NCBI GenBank assembly: GCA_000702685.1
Contig: JNJD01000006.1
Coordinates: 186,001 to 250,000 of the forward strand
Source of the DNA: Lachnospiraceae bacterium AC2028
Lineage (GTDB): Bacteria; Bacillota; Clostridia; Lachnospirales; Lachnospiraceae
DNA: 64,000 nucleotides
Reading direction: 5' to 3'
The stretch's first letter is position 1. Each line of letters begins with the position of its first letter. The notes beneath the pieces are model-generated. The model did no database searches. It was not told the DNA's origin and saw only the letters and a program-made list of their open reading frames with translations. Below, piece after piece: positions 2,533 to 63,911 of this stretch. Made by a program: the position numbers and the translations under genes.

Positions 2533-3699
2533 TTAGCCCTTTACGACTCTTACTCTGATAACGCCTTCAGCTGCAGCGAGCTTCTCAACGAGAGACTCGG
2601 TAGGTACATCATCAAGATCGAGAAGTGTTACGGCATAATCTCCTCTTGACTTGTTCATCATATCGGAGATGTTGATCTTCTCAGCACCGATAACTGCGGT
2701 GAACTGGGTGATCATGTTAGCCTGGTTCTTGTGGAATACTTCAACTCTTCCCTTATTGTCGCAGGGTCCCATGTCTATAGCGGGATAGTTAACGGAATTC
2801 TTGATGTTTCCGTTGTTGAGATAATCCATGATCTCGGCAACAGCCATCTTAGCACAGTTATCCTCGGACTCTTCGGTACTTGCTCCGAGATGGGGAGTAA
2901 GGATGACTCCGGGCTGGCCTGCGGTGGTTGCATTGGGGAAATCGGATACATATCTTGCTACCTTGCCGTTCTTGAGAGCCTCAAGCATATCGGTCTCGGA
3001 AACAAGAAGATCTCTTGCATAGTTGATGACGACAACGCCGTCCTTCATCTGGGAGATAGCTTCACGGTTGATGGTTCCCTTTGTTGAATCAAGAAGGGGA
3101 ACATGGATGGTGATGTAATCGCACTCCTTATAGATCTCTTCTACCTTCTCAACATGCTTTACATTTCTGGAAAGGTTCCATGCTGCATTTACGGAAAGAT
3201 AAGGATCGTATCCGTAAACTTCCATTCCGAGATGGATAGCTGCATTTGCAACCTTAACGCCGATGGCACCGAGTCCGATGACACCGAGCTTCTTGCCTGC
3301 GATCTCGGTTCCTGCGTAGTTCTTCTTCTGCTTCTCTGCAGTCTTGGCAATATCCGCATCGGATGCATTTTCCTTGATCCACTCGATACCGCCTACGATA
3401 TCTCTGGCTGCAAGGAGCATGCCGGCAAGGACGAGCTCTTTAACGCCGTTAGCGTTTGCACCGGGGGTATTGAAAACAACGATACCCTTCTCTGCGCACT
3501 TATCAAGAGGGATATTGTTGACTCCGGCACCTGCTCTTGCTACGGCAAGAAGATTGTCGGGAAGCTCCATCTCATGCATGGAAGCGCTTCTTACAAGGAT
3601 ACCCTCTGCTTCGTCTACCTTATCGGTAATATGGAAATCACCGGTCAGATCGGCAAGACCGACCTGTGAAATGGGATTAAGGCAATTGATCTTAAACAT
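2533..3699 (-). CDS. serA: D-3-phosphoglycerate dehydrogenase with ACT domain
   Basis: Catalyses the NAD-dependent oxidation of 3-phosphoglycerate, the first step of serine synthesis. The 388-residue protein shows the Rossmann motif GLGAIG (142-147), the substrate Arg in NYARD (229), the catalytic His in TPHLGASTEES (270) and a C-terminal ACT domain (about 320-388) of the kind used for serine feedback in this family. The segment around residues 252-258 reads SDFPNAT, where the usual catalytic Glu (PTEP or DFPNPE in relatives) is not obvious. It follows serC by 24 bp, in pathway order reversed, and ends at a strong terminator, so serC-serA is one operon from the promoter at 4846-4874. Confidence 0.95.
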   Translation of the reverse strand: MFKINCLNPISQVGLADLTGDFHITDKVDEAEGILVRSASMHEMELPDNLLAVARAGAGVNNIPLDKCAEKGIVVFNTPGANANGVKELVLAGMLLAARDIVGGIEWIKENASDADIAKTAEKQKKNYAGTEIAGKKLGVIGLGAIGVKVANAAIHLGMEVYGYDPYLSVNAAWNLSRNVKHVEKVEEIYKECDYITIHVPLLDSTKGTINREAISQMKDGVVVINYARDLLVSETDMLEALKNGKVARYVSDFPNATTAGQPGVILTPHLGASTEESEDNCAKMAVAEIMDYLNNGNIKNSVNYPAIDMGPCDNKGRVEVFHKNQANMITQFTAVIGAEKINISDMMNKSRGDYAVTLLDLDDVPTESLVEKLAAAEGVIRVRVVKG

Positions 3700-10888: not shown

Positions 10889-10933
10889 GGGGCGTATTTA
10901 TCCTTTTTCTTTAATTTATGCTTTTTTTATGAG

Positions 10934-10986
10934 GTGAATGAGGGGGACGGTTCCGGTGAATGAGGGGGACAGTTCCTGCGCTCATC
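10934..10986. repeat. REP-like GGGGGACgGTTCC repeat, two tandem units
   Basis: Two 22-bp direct units (10934-10955 and 10956-10977), each GTGAATGAGGGGGAC followed by GGTTCC or AGTTCC, then TGCGCTCATCC, so that ATGAG of the second unit can pair with CTCAT. The same core recurs inside the oxidoreductase gene at 37.3 kb and at 63.9 kb, so it is a dispersed repeat family. It lies between the yajC terminator and the leuB promoter, in the otherwise empty 247-bp gap. Confidence 0.8.
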
Positions 10987-22837: not shown

Positions 22838-24958
22838 ATGAGTTTTTTCATTAAATATGTAAAAAGAGCGGCAGTCGTAATGCTCGCCCTGATAACGGTC
22901 ATATTATCCGTATCTCCCTATACAGGAACCGGATATGTAAATGCTGCGGGCACTCCCGAAGCTAAAAATGTATCCACCAACCTCTGGGGAAGCGGCGGAC
23001 AGATCTCTTTCGATCTTTCCGGATGCGACGGATACATGACAATTACAGTAGTCGTGGAATTCAATGCCAACGTAAATTCCCCTTCGGGCTGGGGGTTTGA
23101 TACCTATACGGCAAACGGCCAGCAGGTCACAGCTACCGTCAAGGCTGACGGAGCCAATTCATGGGGATTCAATTCCAATGTCGGCATCCAGGTATCGGGA
23201 TCAGGCATCAACAGCGCCAAAGTCGTAAGCGTATCCGGCTCGGGTACCTACAGCGGCAATTCCAACAATAACAACAATAATAATTCGAATAACCAGAACA
23301 ACAACCAGAACAATCAGAATAACGATCAGAACAATGCCTCCAAGCCGGAGTTCTCATCTCCCGCCGTATCCACATACGGAACCGCAGGTGATGACTGGCT
23401 TACAACAAGCGGTGCCAAGATCGTCGATATGAACGGCAACGAAGTATGGCTTACCGGTTGCAACTGGTTCGGTTACAATACCGGAACCAACCTTTTCGAC
23501 GGACTCTGGAACGCCGAGCTTGAAAGCTCTGTCAAAGCAATTGCCGATCACGGATTCAATCTGCTTCGTGTACCCATGTCAGCCGAGCTTCTGCTTGAAT
23601 GGAAGAAAGGCAGCTATCCCACCGCAAATTACAATCACGCATATAACGGCAATCTTAATTCACTCAATTCACTTGAGATCTTCGACTATGTCCTTACCCT
23701 CTGTGAGCAGAACGGCATCAAGGTTATGGTCGATATCCACTCAGCCAACACGGATGCATCGGGGCATAATCATCCTGTATGGTATACCGATAAGATATCG
23801 GAGGATCAGTATATCGAAGCTCTTAAATGGCTTGCCGAAAGATACAAGAATTACGATACCATAATCGCATATGACCTCAAAAACGAGCCTCATGGAAAAG
23901 CAAGCGAACAGACTCATGCCATCTGGAACAATTCCGATGATAAGAATAACTGGAAAAGAGTTGCCGAGAAAGCAGGAAATGCGATCCTCGACATCAATCC
24001 TCACGCGCTGATCGTCATTGAAGGAATCCAGATCTATCCTACGAATCCTTCATCCAACAATTTCACTTCCACCAACGATGCCGATTACTACAATACCTGG
24101 TGGGGCGGAAACCTCATGGCAGTCAAGGATTATCCCATTGATTTCGGAAGCGAATCAAGAAACAGGCAGATCGTCTACTCTCCTCACGATTACGGTCCGC
24201 TCGTATATGAACAACCCTGGTTCACCGGCGGATTCACATACGAATCACTTTATAAAGATGCATGGCATCCTTACTGGCTCTATATCGAAGAGGACGGCAT
24301 CGCTCCCATACTCATCGGAGAATGGGGCGGATTCATGCAGGGAGACAACCTCAAGTGGATGGAGTATATCAGGGACCTTATCGGAAAAGAAAACCTTCAT
24401 CACACCTTCTGGTGCTTCAACGCAAACTCAGGTGATACGGGCGGTCTTGTTAAAGATGATTTCAAGACCTGGGATGAAGAAAAGTACGCTCTTGTAAAAC
24501 CCGTTCTCTGGGCTGATGATGCCGGCAAATTCATAAGCCTTGACCACGTTGTTGCACTCGGTGCAAACGGAATAAGTCTTTCGGATTATTCGGGAAATGC
24601 TCCCAAGCCTGTAATAAATGACGGCACCGTTACGGAAACCGAAGAACCCGTGATCGAAACAAACGATAACACAGTCGCAGACACTCCTTCGGATGTCGAA
24701 GTGGTCGTTGCCGATACAGCAGTCGATCAGGCAGCCAATGCAAATGACAGCGATCCGATGAATATTACACCCGACAATCCCACTGAGAAAAAGGGAATAA
24801 GCCTCGGTCTTCTGGTAGTACTTCTGGTTGTTGCCGTAGCTCTTCTGGGACTTGTCATTATAATGAATTATCATAATATCAAGAAACTGAGATCATCGGA
24901 TGAATTCGATGAAAAGATCGTGCTTGATGACGATTACGATAACAGCGATAAAAAATAG
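22838..24958 (+). CDS. Surface-anchored GH5 endoglucanase (cellulase)
   Basis: A 706-residue exported glycoside hydrolase. Order of parts: signal peptide (1-37, ending near NAAG), an N-terminal beta-rich domain (about 40-137) that may be a carbohydrate-binding module of a family I cannot name, an Asn/Gln linker (142-167), a GH5 catalytic domain (about 175-560), an acidic Thr/Val-rich spacer, a transmembrane helix (653-677) and a short charged cytoplasmic tail. Catalytic residues are Glu350 in DLKNEPHG (acid/base) and Glu495 in LIGEWGG (nucleophile). The C-terminal helix suggests the enzyme stays on the cell surface. AAGGAG precedes the ATG, and a terminator follows. Most likely cellulose or beta-glucan is the substrate; a mannanase cannot be excluded. 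Confidence 0.92.
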   Translation: MSFFIKYVKRAAVVMLALITVILSVSPYTGTGYVNAAGTPEAKNVSTNLWGSGGQISFDLSGCDGYMTITVVVEFNANVNSPSGWGFDTYTANGQQVTATVKADGANSWGFNSNVGIQVSGSGINSAKVVSVSGSGTYSGNSNNNNNNNSNNQNNNQNNQNNDQNNASKPEFSSPAVSTYGTAGDDWLTTSGAKIVDMNGNEVWLTGCNWFGYNTGTNLFDGLWNAELESSVKAIADHGFNLLRVPMSAELLLEWKKGSYPTANYNHAYNGNLNSLNSLEIFDYVLTLCEQNGIKVMVDIHSANTDASGHNHPVWYTDKISEDQYIEALKWLAERYKNYDTIIAYDLKNEPHGKASEQTHAIWNNSDDKNNWKRVAEKAGNAILDINPHALIVIEGIQIYPTNPSSNNFTSTNDADYYNTWWGGNLMAVKDYPIDFGSESRNRQIVYSPHDYGPLVYEQPWFTGGFTYESLYKDAWHPYWLYIEEDGIAPILIGEWGGFMQGDNLKWMEYIRDLIGKENLHHTFWCFNANSGDTGGLVKDDFKTWDEEKYALVKPVLWADDAGKFISLDHVVALGANGISLSDYSGNAPKPVINDGTVTETEEPVIETNDNTVADTPSDVEVVVADTAVDQAANANDSDPMNITPDNPTEKKGISLGLLVVLLVVAVALLGLVIIMNYHNIKKLRSSDEFDEKIVLDDDYDNSDKK
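23262..23340 (+). repeat. Low-complexity Asn/Gln linker repeat in the GH5 gene
   Basis: Run of AAC, AAT and CAG codons encoding an Asn/Gln/Ser linker of about 26 residues between the N-terminal domain and the catalytic domain. Length variation by slippage is likely in relatives. Confidence 0.85.
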
Positions 24959-36986: not shown

Positions 36987-38723
36987 TTAAACCATATTGG
37001 TCACAGCATATTTTCTTATGATCATCTCAGCCCCGCGAATTCCGTCGATGGCTGCGGAGGTTATTCCGCCCGCAAATCCCGCACCTTCACCAAGAGGAAT
37101 TATGCCGCGTATTGATGCCTCAAGACTTTCATCCCTGGGTATCCTTACCGGAGAACTTGTTCTAGATTCAACGCCTGCCATGATGGTTTCGGGTGAATCA
37201 AAACCCGCGATTGTTCTTCCGAACCGGGTCATCCCATCAACAAAAAGCTTATTGATATTATCGTCAAATATGCGTGTCAGATCAGCCCACTCGTACTCAC
37301 CCTTGAACACTGGGGAGACTGTAAACGAGGAAGCAGCTCCGGGTTCACAGTTTGAGTCACAGGGACAGTCCCCCTGACTCAACACAGGATCGACAGCAAA
37401 CGAGGGAGCGGTTTCTGCGTTCACAACTTCGGGGTGAACGGAGGAACCGTCCCCTAGTTCACTGACCTTCTCTTTGAAATCTCCGTACCTCTGCGCCGGA
37501 ATCTTACCGCCCGCAGCTTCGAAGGCTCTTCTTTCAAGACCTCTCTGATACTCTATTCCGGCAAGAGGATGATCGGACGGATAATCGGAAACGGGAATGC
37601 TTACGACTATAGCGGAATTGGCATTCTCCGAATCTCTTCCGCTGTAGCTCATACCGTTTACGACAGTCTCGCCTTCTTCCGATGAAGAATTAACGACATA
37701 ACCTCCGGGACACATGCAGAAAGAAAACACTCCTCTGTCACCGAAATTTGCAGTGAGCTTATAGGGAGATGCACCGAGCACGTCGGCATATTTACAGTCA
37801 CCGTATTGATTCTCATTGATGATTGATTGAGGGTGCTGTACCCTGAAGCCGGCGGCAAAGGGTTTCTGTTCCATCTTAAGTCCGCTGTCATAAAGAGACA
37901 GGTATGTATCCCTTGCGGAATGGCCTATCGCCAGTGCAAGAACAGAGGTCCCTATCTTCTCTGTACTTCCGTCTTTATTTCTTACAATTATCGAAGACAC
38001 GTTTCCACTCTTATCTTCAATGCCCGTAAGACAGGATTCGAATCTGACTTCTCCACCCAGTGCAATGATCTTCTCACGGATGCTCTTAACTATCTGCGGA
38101 AGAATATCCGTTCCGAGATGAGGCATATGGTCGTAAAGTATCTCTTCCGGTGCTCCGTTTTCAACAAAAGTCTTAAGGACTTCGCCTATCCTGCCTTCCT
38201 TATCCTTAATAGATGTAGAAAGCTTTCCGTCGGAAAAAGTTCCGGCTCCGCCCTCACCGAACTGTACATTGCTGTTTGTATCAAGAACACCGGTCTCCCA
38301 GAATCTTTCAACGTCCGCAGCCCTGTCTTCGACACATCTTCCGCGTTCGATAACAAGAGGTTTAAAGCCTGCCTTTGCAAGCTCATAAGCGCAGAAAAGA
38401 CCGGCAGGTCCCATTCCCACAACAACGGGTCTGTCAGTCAGTTCTTCATTTCCGCAATGCGGAAGCACATATTCTTTTTTACGGTAGGAAGATATATTTG
38501 CATTGCGCGAATTTCTCTTAAGAATCTTTTCCTCGTTCACGCAATCCGCCCATACACTGAACACATAGAAAAGTTCGGGCTTTTTTCTGGCATCAAGAGA
38601 TCTTCTTATGATTCCGAACTCATTTATATCAGACGATGAGATCTTAAGTATAGAACAAACAGCCCCCTTAATATCGGGCTGTTTATTACCGACTTTTATT
38701 TTGATCTGATCGATGCGTATCAT
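36987..38723 (-). CDS. NAD(P)/FAD-dependent oxidoreductase with in-frame repeat insertion
   Basis: A 578-residue FAD-binding dehydrogenase-like protein (COG2509 type) of unknown substrate. Seen are the N-terminal region before the dinucleotide motif (VVVGMGPAGLFCAYELAKAG), ERGRCVEDR, FGEGGAGTFSDGKLSTS, FCMCPGGYVVNS and the C-terminal FAD motif SRTSSPVRI...PLGEGAGFAGGITSAA. Between RYGDFKEKVSE and KGEYEWADL (about residues 420-472) lies a Ser/Pro/Cys-rich stretch made of two 25-residue units. In DNA these are tandem 75-bp units, each holding a REP-like hairpin, and they keep the frame open. Relatives known to me are nearer 530 residues and lack this. It is cotranscribed with the flippase and ybeY. 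Confidence 0.9.
   Translation of the reverse strand: MIRIDQIKIKVGNKQPDIKGAVCSILKISSSDINEFGIIRRSLDARKKPELFYVFSVWADCVNEEKILKRNSRNANISSYRKKEYVLPHCGNEELTDRPVVVGMGPAGLFCAYELAKAGFKPLVIERGRCVEDRAADVERFWETGVLDTNSNVQFGEGGAGTFSDGKLSTSIKDKEGRIGEVLKTFVENGAPEEILYDHMPHLGTDILPQIVKSIREKIIALGGEVRFESCLTGIEDKSGNVSSIIVRNKDGSTEKIGTSVLALAIGHSARDTYLSLYDSGLKMEQKPFAAGFRVQHPQSIINENQYGDCKYADVLGASPYKLTANFGDRGVFSFCMCPGGYVVNSSSEEGETVVNGMSYSGRDSENANSAIVVSIPVSDYPSDHPLAGIEYQRGLERRAFEAAGGKIPAQRYGDFKEKVSELGDGSSVHPEVVNAETAPSFAVDPVLSQGDCPCDSNCEPGAASSFTVSPVFKGEYEWADLTRIFDDNINKLFVDGMTRFGRTIAGFDSPETIMAGVESRTSSPVRIPRDESLEASIRGIIPLGEGAGFAGGITSAAIDGIRGAEMIIRKYAVTNMV
37306..37462. repeat. Two 75-bp tandem units with REP-like hairpins inside the oxidoreductase gene
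   Basis: Units 37306-37380 and 37381-37455. Each has a 45-bp coding part (about 65-70% identical between units by eye) and a 30-bp stem-loop. Hairpin A (37352-37382) has arms TTGAGTCA/TGACTCAA around a GGGACAGTCCCCC core; hairpin B (37434-37462) has arms GTGAAC/GTTCAC around GGAACCGTCCCC. The period is a multiple of three, so the reading frame is kept. The core is the same as in the repeats at 10.9 kb and 63.9 kb. Confidence 0.85.
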
Positions 38724-55135: not shown

Positions 55136-57427
55136 TTAAACATCGAAATCATCATTATCGGAAATATTAATGTCGTAATGGAGTGAAGAGTCATCGACAT
55201 TAATGTCATATTCCATATTCTTGTGCTCGGTCTTCCTTGCGGGATGGGGAATGGGATTATCCAGAAGCACCGCACCGTTAGGTGCGATCTCAGGCTTCTT
55301 CTCTTCCGCTTTGGGAGCAGGTACTTCCGGAGCTTTCTTCTCGATGACTTCGGGTGCCTTGTCTTCCTTCTTGGCAGAAGCTTCATCCTGCTTAGCCTTA
55401 TCCTTATCCATGTAAGACTGTGCCCATGCACCGGGTCTTCTTCTGAACTCAGGTCTGAGCTGAGGCTTTTGATATGTATATGTACTGTAGGTCTTGGGTC
55501 TTTCGGGCTGTTTTTCTTCGGTCTTTGCAACGGTCTTGTCTTCGGTCTGAGACGCAGTCTTGTCTTCGCTTTGAGCCGCAGGCTTTTCCTCTGTCTTTTC
55601 CGCTTTCTGTGGCGAAGTATTATCCTCAGTCTTTTCCGCGGGCTTTTGGGCATTCATTATGCCTGATGCGACAGGCTGATTGCTTGCCGTATCGGAAGCT
55701 TCATGTCCGGCGGCCTCCGCATCACGTGCAGCCTTTGCCGCAAGTGCCGCTTCGGAAAGATGGACTCTCGGAACTTTTTCAACTGCGGGAGCAAATCCTG
55801 AAAGTGTCGATGCAGAATCTACCTGAGCGGGTCCGGAAAGTGTCGATGAATGAACCGTCTGTGCAGGTTCCTGCTGAGCCGCCTTATCCTGAGCCGCTGC
55901 ATGAGCCCTGGCTATCGGAGCGGAATCAAAAGCGGGATATTCGAATACATCTTCTTTCTTTTCCTCGGCTTTTGTCTCTGCAGGCTTTGCAGATTCCGCA
56001 TTTGATTGAACGGTTGAATTTTCGGCTTTGGGTGCCGATCCTGCTTCCGCTTTGGGTACGGATGCGGGAATTTCCGATGTATCCGTCATGCCCTCTCCGA
56101 TATCACCGAAATCTTCGGGCGAAAGATCCGTGCCGCTCTTGACACCGGCAGGTACATAGCCCTTATCGGGTGCCGTAAATTCGTTATCATACATTTCGGA
56201 GCTGGCTTTAAAAATATCTCCCTGTATCTGATCGGGGAACAGTTCCCTGAAAGCGGTTCCCGCAAACAGCGCCGCGAATGCAAAGAATATCTCTCTTCCG
56301 TCATTCTCGAGATAGGTGAGCCCGAAATTATTGATGAGCGTTACCACAATGACGGAAAGAAGAAGTATGGTCTTGGAATCGTTCTCTGCAAGGAAGCATA
56401 CAAAGAGGCCGATCGAAACTATCACAGCGATGATGGTAACCTCGGCATATGAAGTCAGATATGTGAATCCGAACGTGAATCCCTTAGAAGGACCGTACAG
56501 AGAAATTATTGCATTAAGAACATCCGAAGGATTGGATGAACTGAAATACGAATCAACGAATATCAGAAGTACAAGTCCGAAAATAACAGAGATAAGCGTA
56601 AAGAGCATTTTACGAAGTCTGAGGCTCAGATCGGTATCTTCATCGGACAGATCGTTGAGCATGATGCCCACGATGAAGGGAATAAGCACAAGTCCGATGA
56701 TATCCGCATAGATACAAACTGCGGTAAGAAGTCCGGCAACAAGATAACAGACGAACTTGCCTCCGGTTGCGGGCACACAGGTGCTGATCGCAAAAAGAGC
56801 AAGCATCACTAACAGAAAAACAAGATTCCTTGAATTGAGCGTAAGAGCTTCGTGAACCGAGAAACCGGTGATGGTCCAGAATCCGGTAAAGAACAGAGCC
56901 GGGATGATCCCGAGCATCTTGCGGAAAGCAAAGAAACCGAGGGCAACCGAAGCAAGCTGAAGAATGCAGTTAAATATGGCTGCTACGAAAATACGGTTCC
57001 CGAACAGAAAAAAGATTGCATGGAGACCGGAAATATACCAGTCATCGCATGCATGAATATAATGTGTGAATTCTCCGCCCGTAACTTTGGCGAGATCGAA
57101 ATAAATATTTCCTCCGAGACCGTTCCAGGTATATGAAGCAACCCTGAAGATGATCGAGGCAATGATCAATACCGCAAAAACAAGAAGACCGAGAGTGTCT
57201 CCTTTTTCAAAGATAGCTTTGACCTGGTCGGAATTCGCAAAGAGCGAAAAGACTTTCCAGAGGATAAGTCCGAGAACGGCAAATACCCCGAATGCTATAA
57301 GTCCGGGCAGATAGGAATAACCGAACTGCTTGGATGCATCCATTATCGCAAGTATGCAGAAAAGACTTGCTACCAGAACAAATATTGCATTGGTGACAAT
57401 GCTTACTTTAGTCTTCCGAAGATTCAT
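55136..57427 (-). CDS. Large polytopic membrane protein with repetitive charged tail
   Basis: A 763-residue protein of no certain family. The first 400 residues hold about ten to eleven membrane helices, with an early extracellular loop (YFDLAKVTGGEFTHYIHACDDWYISG) in the place where GT-C glycosyltransferases often carry acidic active-site residues; that relation is a guess. The last 350 residues are disordered, Ala/Glu/Lys/Pro rich, and contain short repeats such as AEKTEEKPAAQ, EDKTASQT and EDKTVAKTEEKQ. It starts inside the end of the preceding glycosyltransferase gene (20-bp overlap, AAAAGG as binding site). The coupling supports work on the same polyprenyl-linked glycan. Confidence 0.7.
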   Translation of the reverse strand: MNLRKTKVSIVTNAIFVLVASLFCILAIMDASKQFGYSYLPGLIAFGVFAVLGLILWKVFSLFANSDQVKAIFEKGDTLGLLVFAVLIIASIIFRVASYTWNGLGGNIYFDLAKVTGGEFTHYIHACDDWYISGLHAIFFLFGNRIFVAAIFNCILQLASVALGFFAFRKMLGIIPALFFTGFWTITGFSVHEALTLNSRNLVFLLVMLALFAISTCVPATGGKFVCYLVAGLLTAVCIYADIIGLVLIPFIVGIMLNDLSDEDTDLSLRLRKMLFTLISVIFGLVLLIFVDSYFSSSNPSDVLNAIISLYGPSKGFTFGFTYLTSYAEVTIIAVIVSIGLFVCFLAENDSKTILLLSVIVVTLINNFGLTYLENDGREIFFAFAALFAGTAFRELFPDQIQGDIFKASSEMYDNEFTAPDKGYVPAGVKSGTDLSPEDFGDIGEGMTDTSEIPASVPKAEAGSAPKAENSTVQSNAESAKPAETKAEEKKEDVFEYPAFDSAPIARAHAAAQDKAAQQEPAQTVHSSTLSGPAQVDSASTLSGFAPAVEKVPRVHLSEAALAAKAARDAEAAGHEASDTASNQPVASGIMNAQKPAEKTEDNTSPQKAEKTEEKPAAQSEDKTASQTEDKTVAKTEEKQPERPKTYSTYTYQKPQLRPEFRRRPGAWAQSYMDKDKAKQDEASAKKEDKAPEVIEKKAPEVPAPKAEEKKPEIAPNGAVLLDNPIPHPARKTEHKNMEYDINVDDSSLHYDINISDNDDFDV

Positions 57428-63881: not shown

Positions 63882-63911
63882 AGGGGGGACGGTTCCGTGT
63901 TTAATAAACAC
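63882..63911. repeat. REP-like GGGGGACGGTTCC repeat with adjoining palindrome
   Basis: Core GGGGGGACGGTTCC (63883-63896) is followed directly by the palindrome GTGTTTAATAAACAC (63897-63911). It fills the 60-bp gap between the ABC-F gene and the next gene. It has the same core as the copies at 10.9 and 37.3 kb. Confidence 0.7.

What the first reader, a model, noticed from the sequence alone, without database searches (positions are those of the whole stretch)
37306..37462. REP-like hairpin units domesticated in-frame within an oxidoreductase gene
The coding sequence of a COG2509-type FAD oxidoreductase holds two 75-bp tandem units (37306-37380, 37381-37455). Each unit repeats a native-looking coding segment (SSFTVSPVFKG-like and PSFAVDPVLSQG-like) and carries a palindromic hairpin with a GGGGACnGTnCC core. 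The period is 25 codons, no stop occurs on the coding strand, and the flanking family motifs remain intact. It looks like a dispersed palindromic repeat that inserted into a gene, was duplicated with part of the host sequence, and now encodes a Cys/Pro/Ser-rich loop. In-frame coding REP elements are rare; the strong hairpins could also affect mRNA or translation.
Basis: partly seen in the sequence, partly recalled or inferred. Interest (0 to 1): 0.8.

Follow-up and report, generated by a model that had tools for sequence, protein, structure and literature searches.

The report
Mobile DNA palindromes inside an enzyme
In an unnamed relative of rumen Lachnospiraceae bacteria, short mobile DNA palindromes that normally sit between genes have landed in reading frame inside an enzyme gene, where they now encode a floppy loop; two other genes of this bacterium carry such copies too.

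Summary
The gene (window 36990-38723, minus) encodes a VP0956-like FAD protein. Its loop at residues 417-473 holds an intact family-A palindrome, a decayed inverted family-A unit, an intact family-B palindrome and perhaps a second decayed family-A unit: not two copies of one 75-bp unit. The genome holds 126 core matches in 76 clusters, 71 of them outside predicted genes although ~91% of the window is coding. Each family lies beside its own Y1 (RAYT/TIRYT-like) transposase gene. The loop is shorter (60-114 nt against 171) in nine relatives of the two nearest clades. One close relative (G013) shows family-A units at the same codon, on two contig ends; two more carry decayed traces. The model has the insert below pLDDT 50 between confident parts. 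QueH (N-terminal linker) and an ABC exporter (linker between domains) also carry in-frame copies, and related species carry other palindrome families in that ABC linker. In-frame REPs inside genes are already published (GTAG/CGTC types, Rickettsia). New here are the GGGGAC type and its repeated occurrence in the same linkers. Most likely tolerated, near-neutral linker growth; no function shown.

The parts
   Evidence: Pfam FAD-depend_C E=1.2e-62; PDB 3nlc E=3.7e-119; invariant residues kept. The COG number was not tested.
37305..37475 (-). expanded loop, residues 417-473, 171 nt against 60-114 nt in nine relatives of the two nearest clades
   Evidence: loop taken from after RYGDF to before KGEYEW; residues 426-463 pLDDT<50
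37434..37462 (-). intact family-A unit, read as SELGDGSSVH
   Evidence: 0 mismatches to GTGAACNNGGGGACGGTTCCNNNGTTCAC
37396..37424 (-). decayed inverted family-A unit, read as VNAETAPSFA
   Evidence: 21 of 29 identical to the inverted consensus, 0 of 2000 shuffles as good; at the corresponding place the G013 contig C73 has an intact inverted unit
37353..37381 (-). intact family-B unit TGAGTCAGGGGGACTGTCCCTGTGACTCA, read as LSQGDCPCDS in the frame that is stop-free in this family
37321..37348 (-). possible second decayed family-A unit, similar to 37396-37424; read as CEPGAASSFT
   Evidence: back halves alike (32 of 43, 0 of 2000 shuffles) but only weakly like the consensus (58 of 2000 shuffles as good)

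Best explanation
The segment is a nested set of short transposase-mobilised palindromes (REP-like, closest to the GGGGWSAS/TIRYT type) that inserted in frame into a surface loop of a FAD protein. Shown by sequence: (1) family-A units are, or were, in this loop in four genomes of one five-genome clade: here one intact and one decayed; in G013 intact units on the two contig ends at this place; decayed traces in G006 and G010; the fifth genome, G016, has no match to the gene. (2) A family-B unit is present here, with a small duplication of the decayed back half. (3) Each piece is read in a stop-free frame. Inferred: an inverted family-A pair was there in the ancestor of the clade; copies are made by the two Y1 (HUH-tyrosine) transposases beside which the two families lie; insertions that broke genes were lost, so only in-frame ones in flexible linkers survive; the inserts then decay by point change and deletion into ordinary linker sequence. 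I take the loop to be nearly neutral for the enzyme.
For: Dispersed family. Placement: 71 of 76 clusters outside predicted genes, window coding fraction 0.915; of the 5 inside, 3 are genuine in-frame units (FAD, QueH, ABC), 1 is a core without the palindrome arms, 1 only overlaps a predicted gene start. Transposases: two Y1_Tnp genes, both matching NCBIfam REP_Tyr_transpos below its cut-off (65.8 and 56.4 of 80 bits), with family A beside one and family B on both sides of the other. Shorter state: loops of 60-114 nt in nine relatives of the two nearest clades. Shared site: G013 contig ends inside family-A units on both sides, open frame on each side; G010 and G006 loops score 13 against the unit (codon-shuffle p 0.001 and 0.002) and beat every other window of their own gene. 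Loop: pLDDT<50 at 426-463; blocks 411-420 and 471-480 at 97 and 90. The same process elsewhere: QueH and ABC linkers.
Against: Y1_Tnp was found in only 2 (G000, G015) of the 11 same-genus genomes that hold family A; many are incomplete drafts, so this may be missing data. The two family-A units nearest their transposase gene are in the same, not inverted, orientation. The traces in G006 and G010 are weak one by one, and in the inverted-repeat test G010 and the cut-off G013 loop are not significant (p 0.299, 0.367) and G006 only p 0.038. G029, outside the clade, has FAD likeness at p 0.010 and tops its gene; G001 (QueH, p 0.011) and G021 (QueH, tops its gene at a score of only 7.5) show the level of chance hits. 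Loops also grow without palindromes (G028 114 nt, G007 204, G020 213). G006, G010 and G013 are listed at 5% contamination, and G010 has three QueH hits. That the two G013 contigs adjoin is inferred. Low pLDDT is also expected where few sequences align. No expression or protein data.
Confidence: 0.88

Rival explanations
1. Linker hot spot: some linkers of this genus are preferred landing sites, so they capture palindromes of different families again and again, and this is a main source of new linker sequence.
For: The ABC linker carries inverted pairs in G000, G013, G014 and G015 (inverted-repeat scores 17, 20, 26, 25; all p 0.002, the floor of 500 codon shuffles), with different arms (near GTGAAC/GTTCAC in G000, GAAACA/TGTTTC in G013, TGAAAC/GTTTCA in G014, CTGACAA/TTGTCAG in G015). 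G014 has no family-A unit at <=3 mismatches and has another pair and a single unit of its own family in the 317 kb read. Two families are in the FAD loop.
Against: Tolerance alone (only linkers survive insertion) would give the same picture. Only three genes were studied, and all three were found because this genome has units in them. The G000 and G013 pairs may be one insertion with changed arms. In G015 the family was seen nowhere else in the 68 kb read.
Confidence: 0.35
2. The hairpins act at the RNA level inside the coding region (pausing, mRNA stability), and that is why intact units persist.
For: Intact units fold well as single strands (DNA parameters); units outside genes sit close to gene 3' ends (42 of 70 within 40 bp), as has been proposed for RNA-acting REPs (PMC3733652, section 15).
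Against: In G006 and G010 the palindromes at this site have decayed while the frame stayed open, which speaks against selection on the hairpin.
Confidence: 0.07
3. Ordinary hypervariable protein loop; likeness to dispersed palindromes is chance.
For: The loop varies in length in relatives, also in genomes without family A (up to 213 nt in G020).
Against: 0 mismatches in 24 fixed bases to a family with 61 strand matches and 0 control matches, plus a second family in the same loop.
Confidence: 0.01
4. Assembly artefact in a repeat.
For: The same place breaks the assembly in G013.
Against: In G000 the place is inside an 806-kb contig, holds two different families, and another genome has a family-A unit at the same codon.
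Confidence: 0.03

Closest known systems
Intragenic GTAG/CGTC REPs, 'REP-decorated' proteins (PMC3733652; found passages and sections 15 and 16 read)
   Same: Short palindromes, mostly intergenic, in some cases wholly inside ORFs; [quoted passage not shown] suggested to be harmless in flexible linkers or loops; in recB of two Xanthomonas species at about the same site.
   Different: Those units have a GTAG or CGTC end tag; these do not. The parts read describe intragenic GTAG and CGTC units only.
TIRYT / TIRtron repeats (PMC3733652 section 16; subclass 2.1 of PMC6006769, section 20 read)
   Same: Y1 transposase gene flanked by repeats, many with the motif GGGGWSAS, some self-complementary and repeated in the genome as dimers or clusters. 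Family B (GGGGACAG) fits the motif; family A (GGGGACGG) has one mismatch.
   Different: The sections read do not report such repeats inside other genes; here three genes carry them in frame.
Rickettsia palindromic elements (RPE) (passages in PMC10969869; PMC3733652 section 15; the original Ogata paper is not held)
   Same: Palindromic mobile repeats inserted in frame in unrelated genes; PMC3733652 equates RPE-4 and RPE-6 with intragenic CGTC repeats.
   Different: RPEs as first reported are ~150 bp (PMC10969869 passage); these units are 29 bp and lie beside Y1 transposase genes.
In-frame REPs inside tnpAREP genes, subclass 2.4 (PMC6006769 section 13 read)
   Same: REP insertions that keep the frame and fall in a peripheral extension.
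   Different: The host gene there is the transposase itself.

Membership tests
REP (repetitive extragenic palindrome), general sense | 20-40 bp palindrome, dispersed in many copies, mainly extragenic | tested here: met
   29-bp units; 48 and 78 core strand matches; 71 of 76 clusters outside predicted genes
REP (repetitive extragenic palindrome), general sense | occurs as inverted dimers (BIME/REPIN) | tested here: met
   e.g. C6:613825/613857, C6:630671/630703, C11:119688/119733
GTAG or CGTC REP super-families | GT[AG]G or CGTC tag at one end of the hairpin | tested here: not met
   units begin GTGAAC or TGAGTCA; hence not filed in these super-families
TIRYT-associated repeats (GGGGWSAS) | flank a Y1 transposase gene | tested here: met
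   family B about 108 bp upstream of the predicted start and within 5 bp of the stop; family A overlapping the stop codon and about 290 bp upstream (positions)
TIRYT-associated repeats (GGGGWSAS) | GGGGWSAS motif | tested here: inconclusive
   family B GGGGACAG fits; family A GGGGACGG has one mismatch
TIRYT-associated repeats (GGGGWSAS) | flanking repeats inverted to each other | tested here: inconclusive
   inverted for family B by its central base (GGGGACAGTCCC / GGGGACTGTCCC on +), same orientation for family A
TIRYT transposase (subclass 2.1) | HUH motif and catalytic Tyr in a Y1_Tnp domain | tested here: met
   Y1_Tnp E=1.3e-15 and 4.2e-10; HVH and an RYI..NP stretch visible in both translations (motif assignment from recall)
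TIRYT transposase (subclass 2.1) | C-terminal helix-turn-helix domain | tested here: inconclusive
   weak HTH_23 match (E=0.0016, under cut-off) for the family-A enzyme, none for the family-B enzyme
REP-decorated protein | unit wholly inside a conserved gene, frame kept, homologues without it | tested here: met
REP-decorated protein | decorated protein is made and works | not testable with these tools
   no expression data

The most novel reading that the evidence does not exclude
In this Lachnospiraceae genus, inter-domain linkers and surface loops grow by repeated in-frame capture of Y1-transposase palindromes. The same linker independently takes units of different families in related species, and the inserts then decay into ordinary-looking disordered linker. 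So part of the 'random' linker sequence of these proteins would be dead mobile DNA that can be dated species by species.
Probability: 0.4. Interest if true: 0.6.

Novelty: new variant of a known kind. Interest (0 to 1): 0.48.

Why it matters
In-frame REPs inside genes were known from surveys of other REP types. Here one site can be compared across relatives: shorter loops without the palindromes, intact units (G013), half decayed with a second family added (this genome) and nearly erased (G006, G010). That gives a path from mobile DNA to protein linker that can be ordered on a tree, and three genes in which it can be tested by deletion. It also shows that GGGGAC-type (TIRYT-like) palindromes can enter genes.

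Tried and rejected
A single duplicated 75-bp unit was rejected: two families and only 35 of 75 ungapped matches. Chance likeness was rejected. A duplicated native segment as the source of PSFAVDPV was set below a decayed inverted unit (G013); for SSFTVSPV it stays open. Intergenic cores that fall in long but low-scoring reading frames, such as the 589-aa frame around C6:537841 or the 5' extension of the 777-aa frame at C9:66576, were not counted as inside genes. The gene caller was a crude codon-score script, trained on the same stretches. Of the 5 clusters inside predicted genes, C7:110638 (a long helicase-like frame; the name AddA is from recall) has the core without arms, and C11:119696 overlaps only a predicted gene start. 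Rows dropped: of the 30 genomes with a match to the FAD protein, the G024 match (a distant paralogue by its score) and the two G030 pieces were left out of the alignment; in the ABC set G026 counts twice, as two pieces of one gene. Literature: the five core strings gave 6 hits, unrelated by title and abstract start; 'repetitive extragenic palindrom' with Lachnospiraceae gave 8, none on this by title and abstract start; some searches gave the precedents cited or nothing closer among the rows listed. These are searches of one open-access library only.

Full report
What was checked. The window is G000:C6:186001-250000, from a 2.77-Mb genome of 14 contigs. The gene on the minus strand, 36990-38723, is open for 578 codons. 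It matches Pfam FAD-depend_C (E=1.2e-62) and PDB 3nlc, VP0956 (E=3.7e-119). The closest named records that encode a relative are Lachnospiraceae without species names, several from rumen or other gut samples; the organism itself is not named by any tool.

The repeat. Two related palindrome families are dispersed in the genome. Family A is GTGAACnnGGGGACGGTTCCnnnGTTCAC; family B is near TGAGTCAnnGGGACwGTCCCnnTGACTCA. The joint core has 65+63 matches against 2+0 for the reversed control: 48 of family-A type (control 0) and 78 strand matches of the type GGGGACWGTYCC (control 1+0). The whole family-A unit with up to 3 mismatches in 24 fixed bases has 61 strand matches and control 0. The 126 family-type core matches in the stretches held fall in 76 clusters.

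Where they lie. A simple codon-score gene caller gave a coding fraction of 0.915 in the window. 71 of 76 clusters lie outside predicted genes and 5 inside. Three of the five are real in-frame units: this FAD gene, a QueH gene and an ABC exporter gene (Pfam QueH and ABC_membrane/ABC_tran). One is a core without palindrome arms, one overlaps only a predicted gene start. If placement were random, 5 or fewer of 76 would have a chance of about 1e-69 (assuming independence and my crude caller). Of 70 intergenic clusters with both neighbours, 42 have the core within 40 bp of a gene 3' end; 45 are in unidirectional, 21 in convergent and 4 in divergent gaps.

The mobiliser. Two Y1_Tnp genes are present. 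One, on the minus strand, has a family-A unit overlapping its stop codon and another about 290 bp upstream. The other has family-B units on both sides (positions). Both match the NCBIfam model REP_Tyr_transpos, below its cut-off. In the genus, Y1_Tnp was found in 9 of 31 genomes and family A in 11 of 31, but both in only two (G000, G015). This is against a tight link, or reflects missing sequence in draft genomes.

Anatomy of the insert. In coding order: an intact family-A unit (37462-37434), a decayed inverted family-A unit (37424-37396; 21 of 29 identical, 0 of 2000 shuffles as good), an intact family-B unit (37381-37353), and a further stretch (37348-37321) whose half-unit resembles that of the first decayed unit (32 of 43, 0 of 2000) but is only weakly like the consensus (58 of 2000). 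The family-A consensus is stop-free in 4 of 6 frames and family B in 2 of 6; the units here are read in stop-free frames. So the peptide holds SELGDGSSVH, VNAETAPSFA, LSQGDCPCDS.

History of the site. The loop varies among the 28 same-genus sequences aligned (own included). It is 171 nt here, 138 in G010, 111 in G006. On a tree of the FAD and ABC proteins with the loops cut out (31 rows, quick method, SH-aLRT only), G000, G006, G010, G013 and G016 form one clade (99). In the sister clade the loop is 60 (G029), 72 (G027), 90 (G023) and 114 nt (G028); in the next clade 63 in G001, G014, G015 and G017 and 96 in G026. G013 (82% identical over the part on its contig) has a contig ending inside a family-A unit at the same codon, and another contig beginning in an inverted family-A unit followed by the rest of the gene; both sides are open. 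G010 and G006 loops keep traces (score 13 each; codon-shuffle p 0.001 and 0.002) and beat all other windows of their own gene; so does G029, weaker and outside the clade (score 11, p 0.010). G016 has no match to the gene. One insertion in the ancestor of the clade, later decay, and a second family added in G000 is the simplest account.

Structure. The AlphaFold model (20 sequences, mean pLDDT 84.6) has residues 426-463 under 50, with blocks 411-420 and 471-480 at 97 and 90. In VP0956 the same place is a short connection. So the insert is most likely a disordered loop, with the caveat that few sequences align there.

Not a single case. QueH: the whole inverted pair, GEQGDGSHVHFVNGGTVPLFT, lies before the conserved LLHSCCAPC motif; relatives without it read like SENAGRVLLHS. 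Family-A likeness at codon-shuffle p of 0.004 or less is seen in G000, both tested G010 copies, G006, G016, G029, G027 and G028; it is not seen in G013, G023 or G017, and G015 gave no QueH match. ABC: G000 and G013 carry pairs; G014 and G015 carry pairs with other arms; G010, G029 and G030 show likeness to family A (p 0.009, 0.005, 0.001); G016, G017, G023, G027 and G028 do not. G006 gave no ABC match at the cut-off used. In an inverted-repeat scan of the held stretches of G000, only QueH and ABC have strong inverted repeats (score 15 or more) inside predicted genes; the decayed FAD pair scores 11. In the inverted-repeat test of loops, two loops of other genomes (G004 QueH, G008 ABC) also reached p 0.002 and 0.006 with 9-bp stems, and G010's second QueH copy and the G011 ABC loop p 0.020 and 0.026; I read the G004, G008 and G011 ones as the chance level.

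Known or new. Intragenic, frame-keeping REPs are in print for GTAG and CGTC types (PMC3733652, sections 15 and 16 and passages read; PMC6006769, sections 13 and 20 and passages read), and for Rickettsia (passages in PMC10969869). Repeats with GGGGWSAS next to Y1 transposases are in print as TIRs of TIRYT genes. I found no report of that type inside other genes in the parts read or in the searches. Hence: new variant of a known kind.

Most likely working. Copying by the Y1 enzymes, loss of frame-breaking hits, survival in linkers, slow decay. Copying, the ancestral pair and neutrality are inferred; placement, frame, families, shorter loops and the shared site are shown.

Noticed in passing
window 10933-10976: Two head-to-tail 22-bp units GGTGAATGAGGGGGACRGTTCC, a family-A-like array between two predicted genes.
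   Followed up: partly
window 63885-63896: A further family-A core outside predicted genes, without the usual arms.
   Followed up: partly
L090:4747-5460 (G000:C6:630073-630786): QueH gene with a complete in-frame inverted pair of family A just before the LLHSCCAPC motif.
   Followed up: yes
L125:6567-8348 (G000:C11:122191-123972): ABC exporter with two family-A units in frame between the membrane and ATPase domains.
   Followed up: yes
L158 (G014) and L162 (G015), ABC linker: In-frame inverted pairs with other arms (TGAAAC/GTTTCA; CTGACAA/TTGTCAG): other palindrome families in the same linker of related species.
   Followed up: partly
L039:1105-1866: The stop codon of the family-A transposase gene is the TGA inside the GTGAAC arm of the adjoining family-A unit.
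   Followed up: partly
G011 and G020: G011 has 76+79 core matches (control 9+3) but no family-A unit at <=3 mismatches, so perhaps another family; G020 has 11+12 (control 7+2).
   Followed up: no
G010:C22, C23, C78: Three QueH hits in one draft genome, perhaps a mixed assembly.
   Followed up: no
L142, same loop of the FAD protein: A long loop with internally repeated peptide (LLSDKRLLSDK, ELKTVADSLKT) in a more distant homologue: the site seems open to other kinds of insertion too.
   Followed up: no
window 3260-3288, 23287-23335 and 55533-55596: Three other short tandem arrays (15-, 21- and 24-bp periods).
   Followed up: no
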